In this document: piece by piece, positions 1 through 48,793 of the stretch
How positions within the stretch are numbered: the stretch's first letter is position 1
How the letters are laid out: each line of letters opens with the position of its first letter
DNA from: Rhizobium sp. Root483D2
Lineage (GTDB): Bacteria; Pseudomonadota; Alphaproteobacteria; Rhizobiales; Rhizobiaceae
Direction: 5' to 3'
Assembly: GCF_001426685.1 (NCBI RefSeq)
Contig: NZ_LMFB01000019.1
Coordinates: 395,958-459,957, forward strand
DNA: 64,000 nucleotides
The notes under the pieces: generated by a model
Told to the model about the DNA's origin: nothing
Databases searched by the model: none
What the model saw: the letters and a program-made list of their open reading frames with translations, nothing else
Translations under genes and position numbers: made by a program

Positions 1-251
1 CACGCGGCATCGCCATGCTGGTTCCCTCCCGAGCCGGTCTGCAAGTGGCCGAATATGCACCGAATGCGGTGAAAAAAGCGGTGATCGGCGTTGGCCATGG
101 CGAAAAGCAGCAGATTCATATGATGCTGAAGATCCTGATGCCAAAGGCCGAATTCAAAGGCAATGACGCCGCCGACGCCTTGGCGATCGCGATCTGCCAC
201 GCGCATAATCGCGGCGGTGCCCGGATGCGCATGGCGGCACTGGCGGGGTAG
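1..251 (+). CDS. ruvC: Crossover junction endodeoxyribonuclease RuvC, C-terminal part (5' end outside window)
   Basis: The open frame runs in from the left edge and ends at TAG 249-251. The visible 80 or so residues match the RuvC C-terminus, including the [15 protein letters not shown] segment and the final acidic helix [15 protein letters not shown] that carries the last metal-binding Asp residues. RuvC cuts Holliday junctions together with RuvAB. The first two catalytic acidic residues lie upstream of the window. Downstream, ruvA is separated from ruvC by an AbrB-PIN gene pair instead of following directly. Confidence 0.95.
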
Positions 252-258
252 TTTGTTC

Positions 259-300
259 TTGACTTGTTCTTTTGGTAAGGATATTTCTTACTTAAAGGAG
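259..300 (+). promoter_or_regulatory. Probable promoter, operator and RBS of the first toxin-antitoxin pair
   Basis: This AT-rich stretch between ruvC and the antitoxin has a -35-like TTGACT at 259-264 and an AT-rich -10 region about 17 nt later (282-287). An inverted repeat GTAAG-N7-CTTAC at 275-291 overlaps the -10 region, where an autorepressing AbrB-type antitoxin would be expected to bind. A strong AAGGAG RBS at 295-300 precedes the ATG at 309. The promoter call is inferred from motifs alone. Confidence 0.45.
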
Positions 301-308
301 ATTGGACA

Positions 309-560
309 ATGCGTGTCACATCAAAAGGGCAGGTAACCATACCGCGTGATTTGAGGGAACTGGCTGGTATCGCGCCCAACAGCGAGGTCATTTTCGCAAT
401 GGAGGGCGGCAAGCTTACAATCGTTCCGAAAGACGGAAAGCAGGAGCTTGAAGAACGGTTACGCTTGGAGCGGTTCCTAAAGTCCTTGCAAGTTCTCGAG
501 GGGACGGGAGATCAGGAAATCGATGCGGCCGAGCTCATGAAAATGACGCGGGACCGGTAA
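309..560 (+). CDS. AbrB/MazE-type (VapB-like) antitoxin, module 1
   Basis: An 83-residue protein. Residues 1-45 form a typical swapped-hairpin AbrB/SpoVT DNA-binding domain (VTSKGQVTIPRDLRELAGI). The charged C-terminal tail (from about residue 47) would wrap and inhibit the toxin. The ATG follows AAGGAG by 8 nt. The partner PIN gene starts 4 nt after the stop, the usual antitoxin-toxin arrangement. By family knowledge it should neutralise the PIN toxin and repress its own promoter. It lies between ruvC and ruvA, which is unusual. Confidence 0.85.
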   Translation: MRVTSKGQVTIPRDLRELAGIAPNSEVIFAMEGGKLTIVPKDGKQELEERLRLERFLKSLQVLEGTGDQEIDAAELMKMTRDR

Positions 561-564
561 TCTG

Positions 565-978
565 ATGGCGACCATTGTCGATACGAATGTCCTGGTTGAC
601 ATTGCTGTTCGGGATCCGAACTGGCACATCTGGTCTAAGACGCAGGTTTTTGCAGCTGCAAAACGGGGATCCGTCGTGATCAACCCGGTGATTTATTCGG
701 AATTCTCCGTCCGCTACGAGCGCATGGAGGATGTAGATTATCTCTTGCCCGAGGCGGATTATATTCGCGAAAACCTGCCGTGGAGTGCCGCTTTTGCAGC
801 AGGCGTAGCGTTTCGCCGTTACAGGTCAGCCGGCGGCGGGCGTGAGCGTGTGCTGCCGGATTTTCTCATCGGCGCGCATGCGGCTATTCGCGGGCATAGC
901 ATTTTGACACGGGATCCAAAAGGCTATCGGGCTTATTTCCCCTCCGTCGAACTGATCACGCCGGAAACTCACCCATGA
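565..978 (+). CDS. PIN-domain ribonuclease toxin (VapC-like), module 1
   Basis: A 137-residue PIN-domain protein. The acidic active-site residues appear intact: the N-terminal VDTNVLVD Asp, the Glu in YSEFS, the Asp in [10 protein letters not shown] and the Asp in LTRDPKGY. VapC-type toxins cleave tRNA or rRNA when freed from the antitoxin; the target here cannot be read from sequence. Its TGA (976-978) overlaps an ATG at 975 that opens a 16-codon frame reaching ruvA. It is not a close copy of the PIN gene at 1995-2399, so the two modules look independently acquired. Confidence 0.85.
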
Positions 979-1025
979 CGGCCAGACCTATGAAGGCCAG
1001 ACCTATGAAAGATTTCGCGCCATGA
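975..1025 (+). CDS. Possible 16-codon bridging ORF between the PIN toxin and ruvA
   Basis: The ATG at 975 overlaps the toxin stop (ATGA). The frame encodes [16 protein letters not shown] and its TGA at 1023-1025 overlaps the ruvA ATG at 1022 (ATGA). The five-residue unit ARPMK occurs twice because 15 bp (980-994) are exactly repeated at 995-1009, a duplication that keeps the frame. It may only pass ribosomes from the toxin gene to ruvA and have no peptide function. It could also be chance: no RBS of its own is evident. Confidence 0.4.
980..1009 (+). repeat. 15-bp perfect tandem duplication upstream of ruvA
   Basis: GGCCAGACCTATGAA occurs at 980-994 and again at 995-1009 without a mismatch. 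It lies in the toxin-ruvA junction, 13 nt before the ruvA start codon. A multiple of three, it preserves the small bridging frame. Slipped-strand duplication or an insertion scar are both plausible origins. Confidence 0.9.
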
Positions 1026-1639
1026 TCGGCAAGCTCAAGGGAACGATCGACGAGATCGGTGACGACCATGTCGTGGTGGATGTGCACGGGGTCGGCTATG
1101 TCGCCCATTGCTCGTCAAGGACACTGTCGAAGATCGGGTCGTCCGGTGAGGCCGTCGTGCTGTTCATCGAAACCTATGTCCGCGAAGACCAGTTGCGGCT
1201 GTTCGGCTTTCTGTCGGCGCTGGAGCGGGAATGGTTCCGGTTGCTGCAGAGCGTGCAGGGTGTTGGCTCCAAGGTGGCGCTTGCCGTTCTCTCCGTGTTG
1301 ACGCCGGGCGAACTGGCCAATGCCATCGCATTGCAGGACAAGACAGCCGTCTCGCGCGCACCGGGAGTTGGCCCCAAGGTTGCCGTGCGCATCGTCACCG
1401 AACTCAAAAACAAGGCACCGGCCTTTGCAGGTGAGGCGGGCGCCAATATCGGATTGAAACAGGAATTGGGTGAAGGCGTCGCCTCTGCGCCGGTGTCGGA
1501 TGCGGTGTCGGCGCTCAGCAATCTCGGCTACTCGCGCGACCAGGCTGCCAATGCGGTCGTGGCGGCGTTGAAGAATGGCGGCGAGGGGCTGGATAGTGCG
1601 AAGCTGATACGCTTGGGGTTGAAGGAACTGGCGCGGTAA
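1022..1639 (+). CDS. ruvA: Holliday junction branch migration protein RuvA
   Basis: A 205-residue protein of normal RuvA length. It opens with [12 protein letters not shown], the OB-fold domain I that contacts the junction. The helix-hairpin-helix segments [12 protein letters not shown] and [12 protein letters not shown] form domain II, and the C-terminal three-helix domain (about 155-205) contacts RuvB. A tetramer binds the four-way junction and loads RuvB. The RBS is weak, so initiation may depend on ribosomes arriving from the preceding toxin/bridging frame through the ATGA overlap at 1022-1025. Confidence 0.96.
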
Positions 1640-1645
1640 CGCGGA

Positions 1646-1682
1646 GGAATTTTGAAAATTCCGACAAATCTGTTAGTGTCGG
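1646..1682 (+). promoter_or_regulatory. Palindromic region upstream of the second antitoxin (candidate operator)
   Basis: Right after ruvA there is a perfect inverted repeat GGAATTTT-G-AAAATTCC at 1646-1662, followed by CCGACA (1661-1666) and TGTCGG (1677-1682) separated by 10 nt. The 74-nt gap is AT-rich compared with its surroundings. Such symmetrical sites upstream of AbrB-type antitoxins usually serve autoregulation. This is an inference from symmetry and position only. Confidence 0.4.
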
Positions 1683-1713
1683 CTAAATTCCAGTTCTTCC
1701 GAAGGATGTGTCG

Positions 1714-1998
1714 ATGCAGTGGGAATTGATTATTTCTGCCAAGGGCCAAGTGACTATCCCAAAGGAAATGCGGGAGGTCCTGGATCTGCGGCCTGGGGAT
1801 CAGTTGATTTACAGCTTGATCGATGGGCAGATTGTCGTCACGCCGAAGAATGTCAATTTCAATGATTTGGCAGGGCTTCTGGGCAAGGCGCCAAACGGGC
1901 ACGCCACGCTGGACGAAATCGACCAGGCAGTCCTTAAGGCTGCGGGCGCAAGTGTAACGGACTTGAAGGGTGACGCGGCGCCGGATGTTGCAGCATGA
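1714..1998 (+). CDS. AbrB/MazE-type (VapB-like) antitoxin, module 2
   Basis: A 94-residue protein (start at ATG 1714) with an AbrB DNA-binding domain (LIISAKGQVTIPKEMREVL). A GTG at 1708 is in frame, but GAAGGA at 1701-1706 is correctly spaced (7 nt) only for the ATG at 1714. The C-terminal half (ATLDEIDQAVLKAAG) resembles a toxin-binding tail. Its TGA overlaps the toxin ATG at 1995. It sits between ruvA and ruvB and differs clearly from the module 1 antitoxin outside the AbrB core. Confidence 0.85.
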   Translation: MQWELIISAKGQVTIPKEMREVLDLRPGDQLIYSLIDGQIVVTPKNVNFNDLAGLLGKAPNGHATLDEIDQAVLKAAGASVTDLKGDAAPDVAA

Positions 1999-2399
1999 AG
2001 ACCTATGGTCTTGATACGAATGTCGTTCTGCGCCTCATTTTGGATGATGATCCAGCCCAGCGACGTGCCGCTTTGATCTTCGGCGCCGGGCTTGGCCGTG
2101 AACACTCGGCGTTCTTATCTTTGATCAGTTTGCTGGAGCTGGATTGGGCTCTAAGATCGCAATACGGCTTTCAGAAAGCGGATGTTGCAACTGCGATTGG
2201 CAAGCTTTTACACACACGTGGTTTGGCTGTAGAGCATCACAGCATGGTCGTTCAGGCTCTGAGGCTGGTAGAGAGTAGCAATGCGGATTTTGCAGATGCT
2301 TTGATTGCCTGCCGATCGCTCGACGTGGGCTGTGTGTCTATCAAGACCTTTGACAAAAAGGCCGCAGGGAAAATACCCGGAATGGAACTTCTCGCATGA
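1995..2399 (+). CDS. PIN-domain ribonuclease toxin (VapC-like), module 2
   Basis: A 134-residue PIN protein. The expected acidic residues are present: Asp in [10 protein letters not shown], Glu in LLELDWAL, Asp in [10 protein letters not shown] and Asp in KTFDKKAA. Translation starts inside the antitoxin stop (ATGA at 1995-1998), and its own TGA overlaps the ruvB ATG at 2396 (ATGA again). Antitoxin, toxin and ruvB therefore form one chain of overlapping codons. The codon choice looks more AT-rich than ruvB, consistent with horizontal acquisition (judged by eye). Confidence 0.86.
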
Positions 2400-3436
2400 C
2401 CGATGCCGCACGTTTGATCACACCGGAAAAGCGCGGCGAGGACCTCGATACGACATTGCGGCCGCAATCGCTGGACGAGTTTACTGGTCAGGCGGAGGCG
2501 CGTGCCAATCTGAAAGTGTTCATCGAGGCGGCAAAGAACCGGGGCGAGGCGCTGGATCATGTGCTGTTCGTTGGTCCGCCCGGCCTGGGCAAGACCACGC
2601 TTGCGCAGATCATGGCCAAGGAACTCGGTGTCAATTTCCGGTCGACATCCGGCCCGGTGATCGCCAAGGCCGGGGATCTTGCGGCACTTTTGACCAATCT
2701 CGAAGACCGCGACGTGCTGTTCATCGATGAAATCCACCGGTTGAACCCGGCCGTGGAAGAAATTCTCTATCCGGCTATGGAGGATTTCCAGCTGGATCTG
2801 ATCATCGGCGAAGGACCGGCAGCGCGGTCCGTAAAGATTGACCTGTCGAAATTCACGCTGGTTGCGGCCACCACACGGCTCGGGCTTTTGACGACGCCGT
2901 TGCGTGATCGCTTCGGCATTCCGGTGCGGCTGAATTTTTATACGGTGGAGGAACTGGAATCGATCGTTCGCCGTGGCGCCCGGTTGATGGGGCTTGGCAT
3001 CACCGATGACGGCGCGCGCGAAATTGCCCGCCGTGCGCGCGGCACGCCGCGGATTGCCGGGCGGCTTTTACGCCGGGTGCGGGATTTCGCGGAGGTGGCA
3101 AAGGCCGAAGCCGTCACCAAGCAGATTGCCGATGAGGCGCTGACGCGGCTTCTGGTGGATAATATGGGCCTTGATCAGCTCGACAAGCGCTACCTCACGA
3201 TGATCGCGCTCAATTTCGGCGGCGGCCCGGTCGGGATCGAGACGATTGCCGCAGGGCTATCGGAGCCGCGCGATGCGATCGAGGATATTATCGAGCCCTA
3301 TATGATCCAGCAGGGTTTCATCCAGCGCACGCCGCGCGGGCGCATTTTAACTGCAAACGCCTGGAAACACCTTGGACTGCAGGTGCCGAAGGATCTGGAA
3401 GCCACCCAGTTCCGTCTGTTCCAAGAGGGTGATTGA
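2396..3436 (+). CDS. ruvB: Holliday junction DNA helicase RuvB
   Basis: A 346-residue AAA+ motor, normal in length. Walker [10 protein letters not shown] is at residues 60-68, Walker B FIDEIH at 109-114, and the C-terminal winged helix ends the protein ([20 protein letters not shown] region). RuvB hexamers drive branch migration on RuvA-bound junctions. Translation starts within the stop of the preceding PIN toxin gene (ATGA), a position normally held by ruvA. The next gene begins at the base immediately after the ruvB stop. Confidence 0.97.
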
Positions 3437-4309
3437 GTGTTGACGCGGCGCGGCTTTGTCCGAACGCTCGGCGCGCTGTTGTTGTCGGGCGTGGCGTCCG
3501 GTGCCTATGCCGTGGGGATAGAACCTGTGGGCCGGCCGCGCATCGTTCGCTACCATCTGATGCCGGAGAATTGGCCGGCCGGGCTGAAGCTGCGGCTGGT
3601 GATCCTGGCTGATATCCATGCCTGCAGACCGTTTATGTCTCCCCGCCGGATCGGCGATATCTGTGCGCAGGCGAATGCGCTGAATGGCGACATGATCCTC
3701 CTGTTGGGCGATTTTCTGTCGGGAATGCGGATGGGAGGTCACCGGGTCACGTCGAACGAATGGGCGGACGAGCTTGCCCGCCTTGCAGCGCCTCTTGGCG
3801 TTCACGCGGTGATGGGCAACCATGATTGGATCGACGACCCCGATGCGATGATCGCGGGCGCGGGGCCGACGATCGTGCATAAGGCGCTGGCCTCGATCAA
3901 CGTGCCTGTCTACGAGAACCGGGCGACCCGTTTTGAAAAGGATGGCCAAGGGTTTTGGCTGGCGGGCCTTGCCGATCAGATCGGACCGCGCATCGGCCTT
4001 GACGATCTGCCGGGAACCTTGGCGCAGGTCACAGACGAGGCGCCGGTTATCCTGATGGCGCATGAGCCGGATGTTTTTCCAGAGGTGCCGGACAGGGTGG
4101 CCGTGACTCTGTCGGGGCACACGCATGGCGGGCAGATCCGTCTGTTCGGCTATTCGCCTGTCGTACCATCGCGCTTCCGCAACCGTTACGCCTACGGCCA
4201 TGTGGTGGAAGACGGCCGCAATCTGATCGTTTCGGGCGGGCTCGGCTGCTCGATCATGCCAGTCCGCTTCGGCTCCCCGCCGGAAATCGTTATTGTCGAA
4301 CTCGGATAG
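3437..4309 (+). CDS. Metallophosphoesterase (YaeI-like), probable Tat substrate
   Basis: A 290-residue calcineurin-like phosphoesterase. The N-terminus carries a twin-arginine signal, TRRGFVRTLG, followed by a hydrophobic stretch ending near AYA, so export by Tat is likely. The metal-binding motifs are present in order: ADIHA, LLGDFLSG, GNHDW, AHEPD and SGHTHGGQ. The GTG start abuts the ruvB TGA, with an AAGAGGGTGA RBS inside ruvB. Substrate is unknown; YaeI relatives act on phosphodiesters at the envelope. It probably shares the ruv transcript. Confidence 0.85.
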   Translation: MLTRRGFVRTLGALLLSGVASGAYAVGIEPVGRPRIVRYHLMPENWPAGLKLRLVILADIHACRPFMSPRRIGDICAQANALNGDMILLLGDFLSGMRMGGHRVTSNEWADELARLAAPLGVHAVMGNHDWIDDPDAMIAGAGPTIVHKALASINVPVYENRATRFEKDGQGFWLAGLADQIGPRIGLDDLPGTLAQVTDEAPVILMAHEPDVFPEVPDRVAVTLSGHTHGGQIRLFGYSPVVPSRFRNRYAYGHVVEDGRNLIVSGGLGCSIMPVRFGSPPEIVIVELG

Positions 4310-26298: not shown

Positions 26299-26407
26299 CC
26301 AAAATAGCCGTTGCTCCGGCAATGCTTGCAGCGTCAAAAATCTTTCCGGAAACGACACATCATTCTTGACTTCCGGGCCTGTCCGCAATATCCACGGCGG
26401 CAGGCCA

Positions 26408-26445
26408 CGCCTCCCTAACGAGGTGCTTTCTATCTGGAAGGATAG
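26408..26445 (+). ncRNA. Candidate serC leader RNA structure
   Basis: Two consecutive hairpins end 5 nt before the serC ATG. The first is CGCCTC/GAGGTG (26408-26413 with 26420-26425; one G-T pair) with loop CCTAAC. The second is CTATC/GATAG (26430-26434 with 26441-26445) with TGGAAG in the loop, which covers part of the serC Shine-Dalgarno GGAAGGAT. A conserved serC leader motif is known upstream of serC-serA in alphaproteobacteria. I cannot compare the covariance model by eye, so identity to it is inferred. Confidence 0.5.
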
Positions 26446-26450
26446 CTTTG

Positions 26451-48716: not shown

Positions 48717-48793
48717 GGCGGGGTAGCTCAGGTGGTTAGAGCAGCGGAATCATAATCCGCGTGTCGGGGGTTCGAGTCCCTCTCCCGCTACCA
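48717..48793 (+). tRNA. tRNA-Met (CAU), elongator type
   Basis: A 77-nt cloverleaf including the encoded CCA. The acceptor stem starts GGCGGGG, the anticodon loop ATCATAA holds CAU within the GCGGA/TCCGC stem, and GGTTCGAGTCCC forms the T-arm. The anticodon stem lacks the three G-C pairs of initiator tRNA. TilS-modified tRNA-Ile(CAU) cannot be fully excluded, but the overall sequence fits elongator Met. Confidence 0.93.

What the first reader, a model, noticed from the sequence alone, without database searches (positions are those of the whole stretch)
249..2400. ruvCAB split by two different AbrB-PIN toxin-antitoxin modules, each seamlessly coupled to the next ruv gene
Seen: ruvC, antitoxin 1, PIN 1, ruvA, antitoxin 2, PIN 2, ruvB, all in one direction. 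Toxin 1 overlaps an ATG leading to ruvA; toxin 2 overlaps ruvB by ATGA; antitoxin 2 overlaps toxin 2 likewise. The PIN active-site acids are intact in both. Known: ruvC-ruvA-ruvB normally follow each other directly. Inference: two separate insertions into the same operon, each leaving the toxin upstream of a recombination gene, suggest that these modules tie toxin and Holliday-junction gene expression together, or that the operon tolerates insertion only at stop/start junctions.
Basis: partly seen in the sequence, partly recalled or inferred. Interest (0 to 1): 0.78.

Follow-up and report, generated by a model that had tools for sequence, protein, structure and literature searches.

The report
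Swappable toxin-antitoxin slots in ruv operon
Two toxin-antitoxin gene pairs sit in fixed slots inside a bacterium's DNA-repair operon, behind a likely DNA-damage switch, and related bacteria keep the slots but swap the pairs in them, which hints at an unrecognised exchange system for such genes.

Summary
In detail: ruvC (3' end), vapB1-vapC1, ruvA, vapB2-vapC2, ruvB, all intact and co-directional. Neither insertion is peculiar to this genome. Of 101 non-redundant Rhizobiaceae-type loci, slot 1 (ruvC|ruvA) is filled in 62 and slot 2 (ruvA|ruvB) in 50.

What sits in a slot is swapped. The same-species genome G009 shares 99.5% of RuvA but only 55% of VapC1 and 34% of VapC2. Slot-1 toxins fall into three classes scattered over the host tree as if at random, whereas occupancy follows the tree. 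A tandem double cassette and an orphan-antitoxin locus look like swap intermediates.

All 62 filled slot-1 loci carry a GTTCN7GTTC box at the end of ruvC (58 of 62 identical over 15 nt). Boxes of that form precede recA and lexA in this genome, so vapBC1-ruvA is probably SOS-controlled. vapC2 overlaps ruvB by ATGA in 50 of 50.

A third core operon (def|fmt) behaves alike in this genus.

Best reading: ordinary VapBC modules in conserved, SOS-linked core-operon sockets, exchanged through the flanks. Expression coupling is inferred. Why classes are exchanged is open. Our paper searches showed no account of the swapping.

The parts
3..251 (+). 3' part of ruvC (82 codons in the window)
   Evidence: Pfam RuvC 8.6e-18
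255..269 (+). GTTCTTGACTTGTTC: LexA-type box GTTCN7GTTC containing a -35-like TTGACT; only exact copy in the genome
   Evidence: boxes upstream of recA and lexA in the same genome
275..291 (+). class-a inverted repeat GTAAGGATATTTCTTAC, probable antitoxin operator
   Evidence: position read
309..560 (+). vapB1, AbrB/MazE-fold antitoxin, class a
   Evidence: Pfam PF04014 1.7e-11
565..978 (+). vapC1, PIN-domain toxin, class a; acids D6, E46, D99, D117
   Evidence: Pfam PF01850 1.3e-7; conservation; AlphaFold pLDDT 87.8 and VapC structure hits
934..978 (+). 3' tail of vapC1 (last 14 codons), near-identical between allele classes in the same-species pair; boundary of the slot-1 swap
975..1025 (+). 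16-codon ORF linking the vapC1 stop and the ruvA start, beside a 15-bp tandem repeat; not kept in the same-species genome
1022..1639 (+). ruvA
   Evidence: TIGR00084 2.3e-57
1646..1662 (+). inverted repeat GGAATTTTGAAAATTCC behind ruvA, possible operator of module 2
   Evidence: position read
1714..1998 (+). vapB2, AbrB/MazE-fold antitoxin (start chosen by comparison; GTG 1708 is the upstream alternative)
   Evidence: Pfam PF04014 4.9e-12
1995..2399 (+). vapC2, PIN-domain toxin; acids D7, E48, D101, D120
   Evidence: Pfam PF01850 2e-7; AlphaFold pLDDT 95.1
2379..2399 (+). GGAATGGAACTTCTCGCATGA: last codons of vapC2, nucleotide-conserved among divergent alleles; likely ruvB translation-start region and slot-2 swap boundary
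2396..3436 (+). ruvB, overlapping vapC2 by ATGA
   Evidence: NF000868 6.2e-155; overlap in 50 of 50

Best explanation
The Rhizobiaceae ruvCAB operon has two conserved sockets for VapBC-type modules.

Socket 1 lies directly behind a LexA-type box between ruvC and ruvA. The box (with a -35-like TTGACT) and an antitoxin-type inverted repeat form the probable promoter of vapB1-vapC1-ruvA and what follows, so the module and ruvAB should rise together on DNA damage (LexA cleavage) and be tuned by antitoxin autoregulation. Socket 2 often has its own inverted repeats, and its toxin's last codons and stop form the ruvB start region.

The modules make an AbrB-fold antitoxin and a PIN-domain RNase toxin. 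They are kept in the lineage as occupants of a fixed socket, but the occupant is repeatedly replaced by another allele class through homologous recombination in the conserved ruv flanks and toxin 3' tails, passing through tandem and orphan-antitoxin states.

Shown: anatomy, conservation, swapping, loci that look like intermediates. Inferred: SOS induction, autoregulation, coupling, RNase activity, and the recombination route.
For: Box: both GTTC halves in 62 of 62 filled slot-1 loci, identical 15-mer in 58. Boxes of the same form lie upstream of recA and lexA in this genome. The exact 15-mer occurs once in the genome. In an order-wide sample it occurs in 37 of 397 genomes, the backward control in none; 23 of 29 newly fetched places have ruvA downstream.
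Operators: classes b and c carry GTAATAC...GTA[AT]TAC in 25 of 26 and 8 of 8; class a carries GTAA...TTAC in 19 of 27; neither pattern occurs in the other classes.
Coupling: vapC2/ruvB ATGA in 50 of 50. The 21-nt start region has 0-2 differences in 41 of 50.
Swapping: same-species pair with flank blocks 90-100% and cassette blocks about 32-80% identical per 50 nt. Class changes on the host tree 23 against a shuffled mean of 25.5 (36 of 200 shuffles as low), but slot-1 occupancy 10 against 30.9 (0 of 200). Cassette GC below the flank in 62 of 62 and 50 of 50.
Intermediates: tandem double cassette with a second ruvC-like tail and box (L199), orphan class-a antitoxin with its own box (L184).
Independent operon: def|fmt, 23 of 26 genus genomes, two classes.
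Against: There is no expression, toxicity or binding data. The consensus promoter scan does not call the presumed promoter at the box. ruvA often has its own AGGA behind the vapC1 stop, so translational coupling in slot 1 is not obligatory. A degenerate box (at most one GTTC mismatch) lies 30-130 nt before the approximate ruvC start in 93 of 101 loci, the same 15-mer in 56, and may drive the whole operon. Many relatives live with both slots empty (26 of 100). In other families the box precedes ruvA without any module (11 of the 23 fetched places with ruvA), so control of ruvA by the box does not need the module. The class-a operator pattern fails in 8 of 27; slot-2 repeats exceed shuffles in only part of the 22 loci printed. 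The host tree comes from the flanking ruv genes themselves. Four of 30 slot-1 loci in the genus-by-genus sample lack the exact 15-mer.
Confidence: 0.7

Rival explanations
1. Purely selfish residence. The modules are addictive elements that landed in a needed operon, cannot be lost easily, and are replaced by other addictive modules; the SOS box and ruv coupling are incidental properties of the site.
For: Orphan antitoxins and remnants are what loss under addiction would leave (L184, L100, L073, L087). GC is below the flanks in all filled slots. Swapping also happens in def|fmt, where none of 26 loci has an exact GTTCN7GTTC in the stretch held. Other families keep the box without a module.
Against: The box is kept in 62 of 62 filled loci, and the 21-nt vapC2/ruvB start region is largely kept at nucleotide level, so site and module look knitted together. 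A different TA family (Phd-PIN) stands behind the same box in L153.
Confidence: 0.35
2. Anti-phage or anti-plasmid defence. The classes are alternative recognition alleles held by frequency-dependent selection, and residence in the SOS/ruv operon gives a damage-linked trigger.
For: Three slot-1 classes and fourteen slot-2 clusters (60% identity) mixed across species; slot-1 class labels look random on the tree although hosts are related. This is a pattern expected of defence loci (general knowledge).
Against: No PADLOC model matches any of the four proteins at E 0.01. VapB1 has no match in 50,697 phage records at E 0.01 (the other three proteins were not searched there). No phage test exists.
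Confidence: 0.3
3. A regulatory device for RuvAB dosage. The module is retained because antitoxin/toxin levels set RuvAB synthesis; class identity is neutral.
For: Box plus operator upstream of ruvA and ATGA coupling to ruvB. In R. leguminosarum 3841, vapB, vapC, ruvA and ruvB of this operon all appear in the same required-gene list (PMC11406972, passages and section 20).
Against: Transposon insertions in vapC may simply be polar on ruvAB. Empty-slot species manage without it. Neutral class identity does not explain such frequent swapping.
Confidence: 0.3
4. Assembly artefact or chance adjacency.
For: The window genome is a draft of 44 contigs.
Against: Same order in tens of independent genomes, including a 5-contig same-species genome.
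Confidence: 0.01

Closest known systems
VapBC type II toxin-antitoxin modules (e.g. VapBC2 of Rickettsia felis 3zvk; VapBC1 of Caulobacter 5k8j)
   Same: antitoxin gene first (AbrB fold by Pfam), PIN toxin with conserved acids, palindrome in the promoter; fold matches to solved VapC toxins
   Different: embedded in a core repair operon in two fixed slots and swapped by class between close relatives
vapB-vapC-ruvA-ruvB (RL3987-RL3990) of Rhizobium leguminosarum 3841 (PMC11406972; passages and section 20 read)
   Same: same slot-1 arrangement; all four genes listed as required for root attachment
   Different: the passages and section read do not discuss the box, a second slot, family-wide distribution or swapping
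LexA-controlled higBA-higX of Caulobacter crescentus (PMC13384398; abstract and section list read)
   Same: an SOS-induced TA module of likely foreign origin upstream of an ancestral gene in an alphaproteobacterium
   Different: HigBA family, few genomes; no second slot or swapping mentioned in the abstract
ruvCAB with LexA sites before ruvC and before ruvAB and with inserted genes in Vibrionaceae (PMC3323433; passages read)
   Same: operon split by inserted genes next to a LexA-controlled ruvAB promoter
   Different: the passages do not say the inserted genes are TA modules; no swapping described in them
dinB-yafN-yafO of E. coli (recalled, no call)
   Same: TA pair inside an SOS-controlled repair operon
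   Different: different toxin family and position

Membership tests
VapBC type II toxin-antitoxin | PIN-domain toxin with conserved acidic residues | tested here: met
   Pfam PF01850 over cut-off; acids in 60-62 of 62 and 49-50 of 50; fold hits
VapBC type II toxin-antitoxin | DNA-binding antitoxin encoded immediately upstream of the toxin | tested here: met
   PF04014 in both; 4 nt apart and ATGA overlap
VapBC type II toxin-antitoxin | operator palindrome in the promoter for autoregulation | tested here: inconclusive
   inverted repeats by class in slot 1 (25 of 26, 8 of 8, 19 of 27); binding untested
VapBC type II toxin-antitoxin | toxin inhibits growth by RNA cleavage and antitoxin neutralises it | not testable with these tools
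   needs a bench assay
VapBC type II toxin-antitoxin | score over NCBI's VapC equivalog cut-off (NF047959; a naming model, not a definition of the family) | tested here: not met
   VapC1 18.9 bits against cut-off 80; VapC2 not listed for it; Pfam PIN cut-off is met by both
LexA (SOS) regulon of alphaproteobacteria | GTTCN7GTTC box in the promoter | tested here: met
   window 255-269; 62 of 62 filled loci; consensus read in a PMC12700426 passage
LexA (SOS) regulon of alphaproteobacteria | same box type at recA and lexA in this genome | tested here: met
   GTTCCTTTCTTGTTC and GTTCCATATGTGTTC, on the minus strand, upstream of recA and lexA
LexA (SOS) regulon of alphaproteobacteria | induction by DNA damage, loss of repression without LexA | not testable with these tools
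   no expression data
integron or other site-specific cassette system | own recombinase in or beside the cassette | tested here: not met
   filled slots measure 700-780 nt in 60 of 62 and 50 of 50, room for the two genes; none of the eight proteins of window 3-4309 scanned is a recombinase of that kind

The most novel reading that the evidence does not exclude
Several core operons of these bacteria (ruvC|ruvA, ruvA|ruvB, def|fmt and perhaps more) are standing sockets for TA cassettes held in a few alternative classes and exchanged between species through fixed flanks and fixed toxin 3' tails: a bacterial trans-species polymorphism kept by diversifying selection, tied to the SOS response at ruv.
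Probability: 0.4. Interest if true: 0.85.

Novelty: new variant of a known kind. Interest (0 to 1): 0.7.

Why it matters
Why chromosomal TA modules persist and what they do is a long-standing dispute. Here they sit in fixed places in core operons, behind a likely DNA-damage promoter, with a measurable contrast: the slot is inherited, the occupant is exchanged. That makes selfish, regulatory and defence hypotheses separable by isogenic class swaps and by population sampling. It also means that transposon phenotypes of such vapB/vapC genes may be polar effects on ruvAB.

Tried and rejected
Considered and rejected. (1) Recent insertions private to this strain: rejected by 23 of 26 (slot 1) and 16 of 26 (slot 2) genus genomes. 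(2) The ATG at 975 as a ruvA start: out of frame, not kept. (3) The box as something brought in by the cassette: among the 101 loci box and cassette nearly coincide (GTTCN7GTTC box in 62 of 62 filled, 3 of 39 unfilled), but other families keep the box before ruvA without a module, so the box is probably older. (4) Slot-1 or slot-2 alleles shuttled on plasmids: tblastn with VapC1 and VapC2 found 138 and 411 plasmid records, all below 60% identity except one of the 138 (records very near the window's genome may be left out), so no near-identical donor was seen. (5) Known phage-defence models: none of four proteins matched. (6) A LexA box in slot 2: a match with at most one mismatch in 4 of 50 filled and 10 of 51 short slots, no association. 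(7) The 15-mer with up to 2 mismatches in the own genome: 6 hits, the exact one included, against 14 for the backward control, so weak copies are not evidence by themselves; one does lie just upstream of lexA.

Limits. L026/L027 are one genome with ruvA/ruvB frameshifts; it counts among the 101 loci but was dropped from the host comparison and trees (100 loci; 61 slot-1 toxins). Six duplicates (L027-L031, L049) were dropped before counts. The slot-2 class test used the four largest clusters only (37 of 50 toxins); within the genus slot-2 classes gave 4 changes against 3.8. Two of 41 matching genomes (G462, G481) and one second hit (G455:C3) were not examined. Ten of 40 places were not fetched. 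In one search the two ruv toxins' best pick fell on paralogues; their slot identities are. One search used a wrong reading frame for def, so its gap lengths are void; one search repeated it in frame (gaps 764-796 nt in 23 filled, 53-93 in 3 empty; classes unchanged).


Full report
WHAT IS THERE. The window begins inside ruvC and holds, all on the + strand, vapB1 (309-560), vapC1 (565-978), ruvA (1022-1639), vapB2 (1714-1998; GTG 1708 is the longer alternative), vapC2 (1995-2399) and ruvB (2396-3436). Both antitoxins match Pfam MazE_antitoxin and both toxins match Pfam PIN above the gathering cut-off. The NCBI VapC equivalog model is not met (18.9 bits against 80 for VapC1; not listed for VapC2). 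Predicted structures are good (pLDDT 87.8 and 95.1). Their nearest solved structures are mostly VapC toxins, with weak E-values around 1e-4 and TM-scores of about 0.6 for VapC1 and below 0.5 for VapC2, whose first hit is PcrIIC1. The ATG overlapping the vapC1 stop opens a 16-codon ORF, not ruvA.

DISTRIBUTION. After dropping six duplicates, 101 loci remain. Slot 1 is filled (gap over 600 nt) in 62 and slot 2 in 50; within the genus in 23 of 26 and 16 of 26. Of 100 loci (one frameshifted genome dropped), 37 have both filled, 24 slot 1 only, 13 slot 2 only, 26 neither. In one genome per genus over the family, a slot-1 toxin profile matched 41 of 101 genomes. Of the 39 examined, 30 have the match between ruvC and ruvA, and 26 of these 30 have the exact box in the stretch held. 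The others examined are paralogues elsewhere, at 52% or less to the window's toxin or its slot relatives; the own genome has one among its 22 PIN genes. Several named near relatives of the toxin are Pararhizobium, though the window's own record is unnamed.

THE BOX. Directly behind ruvC stands GTTCTTGACTTGTTC (255-269). Both GTTC halves, seven bases apart, are present in 62 of 62 filled slot-1 loci; the whole 15-mer is identical in 58 and differs by one inner base in 4; in L021 it overlaps the ruvC stop. Of 39 unfilled loci the box is in 3, with leftover gaps of 104-232 nt (L034, L073, L074). In this genome recA and lexA have boxes of the same form upstream. A passage of PMC12700426 gives GTTCN7GTTC as the Caulobacter LexA motif. 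In the order the exact 15-mer occurs in 37 of 397 genomes, the backward control in none. Of 29 newly fetched places 23 have ruvA downstream: 8 with an AbrB-PIN module, 1 with a Phd-PIN module (L153), 3 with an antitoxin-like stretch and no toxin, 11 with no module. So the box is probably an old ruvA-side promoter element, and modules come to stand behind it. Behind the box lies a class-specific inverted repeat before vapB1 (class b 25 of 26, class c 8 of 8, class a 19 of 27). A degenerate box lies before ruvC in 93 of 101.

THE JOINTS. vapC2 overlaps ruvB by ATGA in 50 of 50. The 21 nt across that joint differ at 0-2 positions in 41 of 50 filled slots although the toxins differ down to 27% identity. 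Five of 50 unfilled slots keep that tail with at most 4 differences, as likely remnants of a lost module. vapC1 is followed by ruvA after 12-16 nt in 39 of 62, and overlaps it by 4 nt in 5 of 62.

THE SWAPPING. The same-species genome G009 has the same order, RuvA 99.5% identical, but VapC1 55%, VapB1 34% and VapC2 34% identical. DNA identity falls just behind the box and at the ruvA stop, and returns in the last 14 codons of vapC1 and the last 7 of vapC2. Slot-1 toxins form three classes at 60% (27, 26, 8 loci) and slot-2 toxins 14 clusters. Host identity barely predicts toxin identity (Spearman 0.16 and 0.08). Antitoxins go with their toxins by class (medians). On a tree of the flanking ruv genes slot-1 classes need 23 changes against 25.5 for shuffled labels (36 of 200 shuffles as low) and the four largest slot-2 clusters 14 against 16.3 (21 of 200). 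Occupancy needs 10 against 30.9 and 22 against 33.7 (0 of 200 each). Thus the slot is inherited, and the occupant shows little or no such signal. Cassettes are lower in GC than flanks in all 62 and all 50.

INTERMEDIATES. L199 (G432) has two complete slot-1 cassettes of different classes in tandem, the second preceded by a diverged stretch resembling the ruvC tail and a second box. L184 (G469) has an orphan class-a-like antitoxin with its own box in front of a complete cassette of another class. They suggest that a new cassette with box enters beside the old one and that the old toxin is lost before its antitoxin.

BEYOND RUV. Between G000 and G009, 10 of 22 PIN genes are kept at 96% or more, 6 (two of them the ruv slots) stand in conserved flanks with a divergent toxin, 1 is moderately diverged (64%) and 5 have no syntenic counterpart among the fetched PIN loci. 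One of the six lies between def and fmt. In the genus that slot is filled in 23 of 26 genomes with two classes (14 and 9), whose toxins share most of their last residues. Its classes also look random on the tree (6 changes against 6.6; 200 of 500 shuffles as low, 22 genomes). The three genomes with an empty def|fmt gap are the three with an empty ruv slot 1.

HOW IT PROBABLY WORKS. Shown: fixed slots, intact modules, conserved box, joints, swapping. Inferred: LexA represses the promoter behind ruvC; on damage vapBC1 and ruvA rise together; antitoxin dimers or antitoxin-toxin complexes tune it; module 2 has its own inverted repeats in many loci and feeds ruvB by coupling. Exchange probably uses homologous recombination in ruv flanks and toxin tails, as no recombinase was seen. 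Whether selection on class is defence, competition between addictive modules or neither is not decided here.

WHAT IS KNOWN. PMC11406972 (passages and section 20) reports vapB-vapC-ruvA-ruvB in R. leguminosarum as required for root attachment; since a toxin-gene insertion gives the same phenotype as ruvA, polarity on ruvAB is the simplest reading (inference). PMC3323433 (passages) reports LexA sites at ruvC and ruvAB and inserted genes in Vibrionaceae, and predicted LexA sites at the ruvCAB promoter in alphaproteobacteria. PMC13384398 (abstract and section list) reports an SOS-induced TA upstream of an ancestral gene in Caulobacter. PMC2701414 (find only) contains no word beginning with 'ruv'. 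Searches listed no paper that, from title and start of abstract, describes swapping of TA modules in ruv or def-fmt; two lists were cut (10 of 25, 12 of 38), and only open-licence PMC papers are searched.

Noticed in passing
L115 (651-2875), L222, L240-L265: def - antitoxin - PIN toxin - fmt: a third core-operon TA slot, 23 of 26 genus genomes, two classes with a shared toxin 3' tail; it sits beside the initiator-tRNA formylation gene (def, fmt named by eye).
   Followed up: partly
L110, L122, L129 (core 1501 onward): Further PIN genes with conserved flanks but divergent toxin between the two same-species genomes; L129 lies beside what look like a HerA-type ATPase gene and rpsD (names by eye, no family search).
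   Followed up: no
L199:1944-3395: Two slot-1 cassettes of different classes in tandem, the second with a ruvC-like tail and box.
   Followed up: yes
L184:926-1914: Orphan class-a-like antitoxin with its own box before a complete cassette of another class.
   Followed up: yes
L153:1572-2254: A Phd/YefM-PIN module stands in slot 1 behind the same box in another family.
   Followed up: partly
L142, L148, L155 (gap behind box): Antitoxin-like stretches without a toxin between box and ruvA in other families.
   Followed up: partly
L046 ruvC-ruvA gap (241 nt): Sinorhizobium glycinis slot 1 holds what looks like a long inverted repeat (CCCCTCTGGCCTGCCGGCC...) instead of a module; L047, L052 and L057 have similar-sized gaps.
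   Followed up: no
window 971-1000: 15-bp tandem repeat at the vapC1-ruvA junction, part of a 16-codon ORF.
   Followed up: partly
L131:1501-1515 and downstream: A 2-mismatch copy of the box (both GTTC halves intact) precedes a gene that looks like a radical-SAM/SplB-type protein by eye; possible further SOS gene.
   Followed up: no
L146:2251-2823: Slot 2 in another family holds a 190-aa ORF with no Pfam match instead of a TA module.
   Followed up: no
L026/L027 (G014): ruvA and ruvB each split by a frameshift in a 78%-complete genome; probably sequencing error.
   Followed up: no
window 26398-26450 and 48717-48793: serC leader RNA (Rfam RF00517) and a tRNA-Met gene.
   Followed up: no
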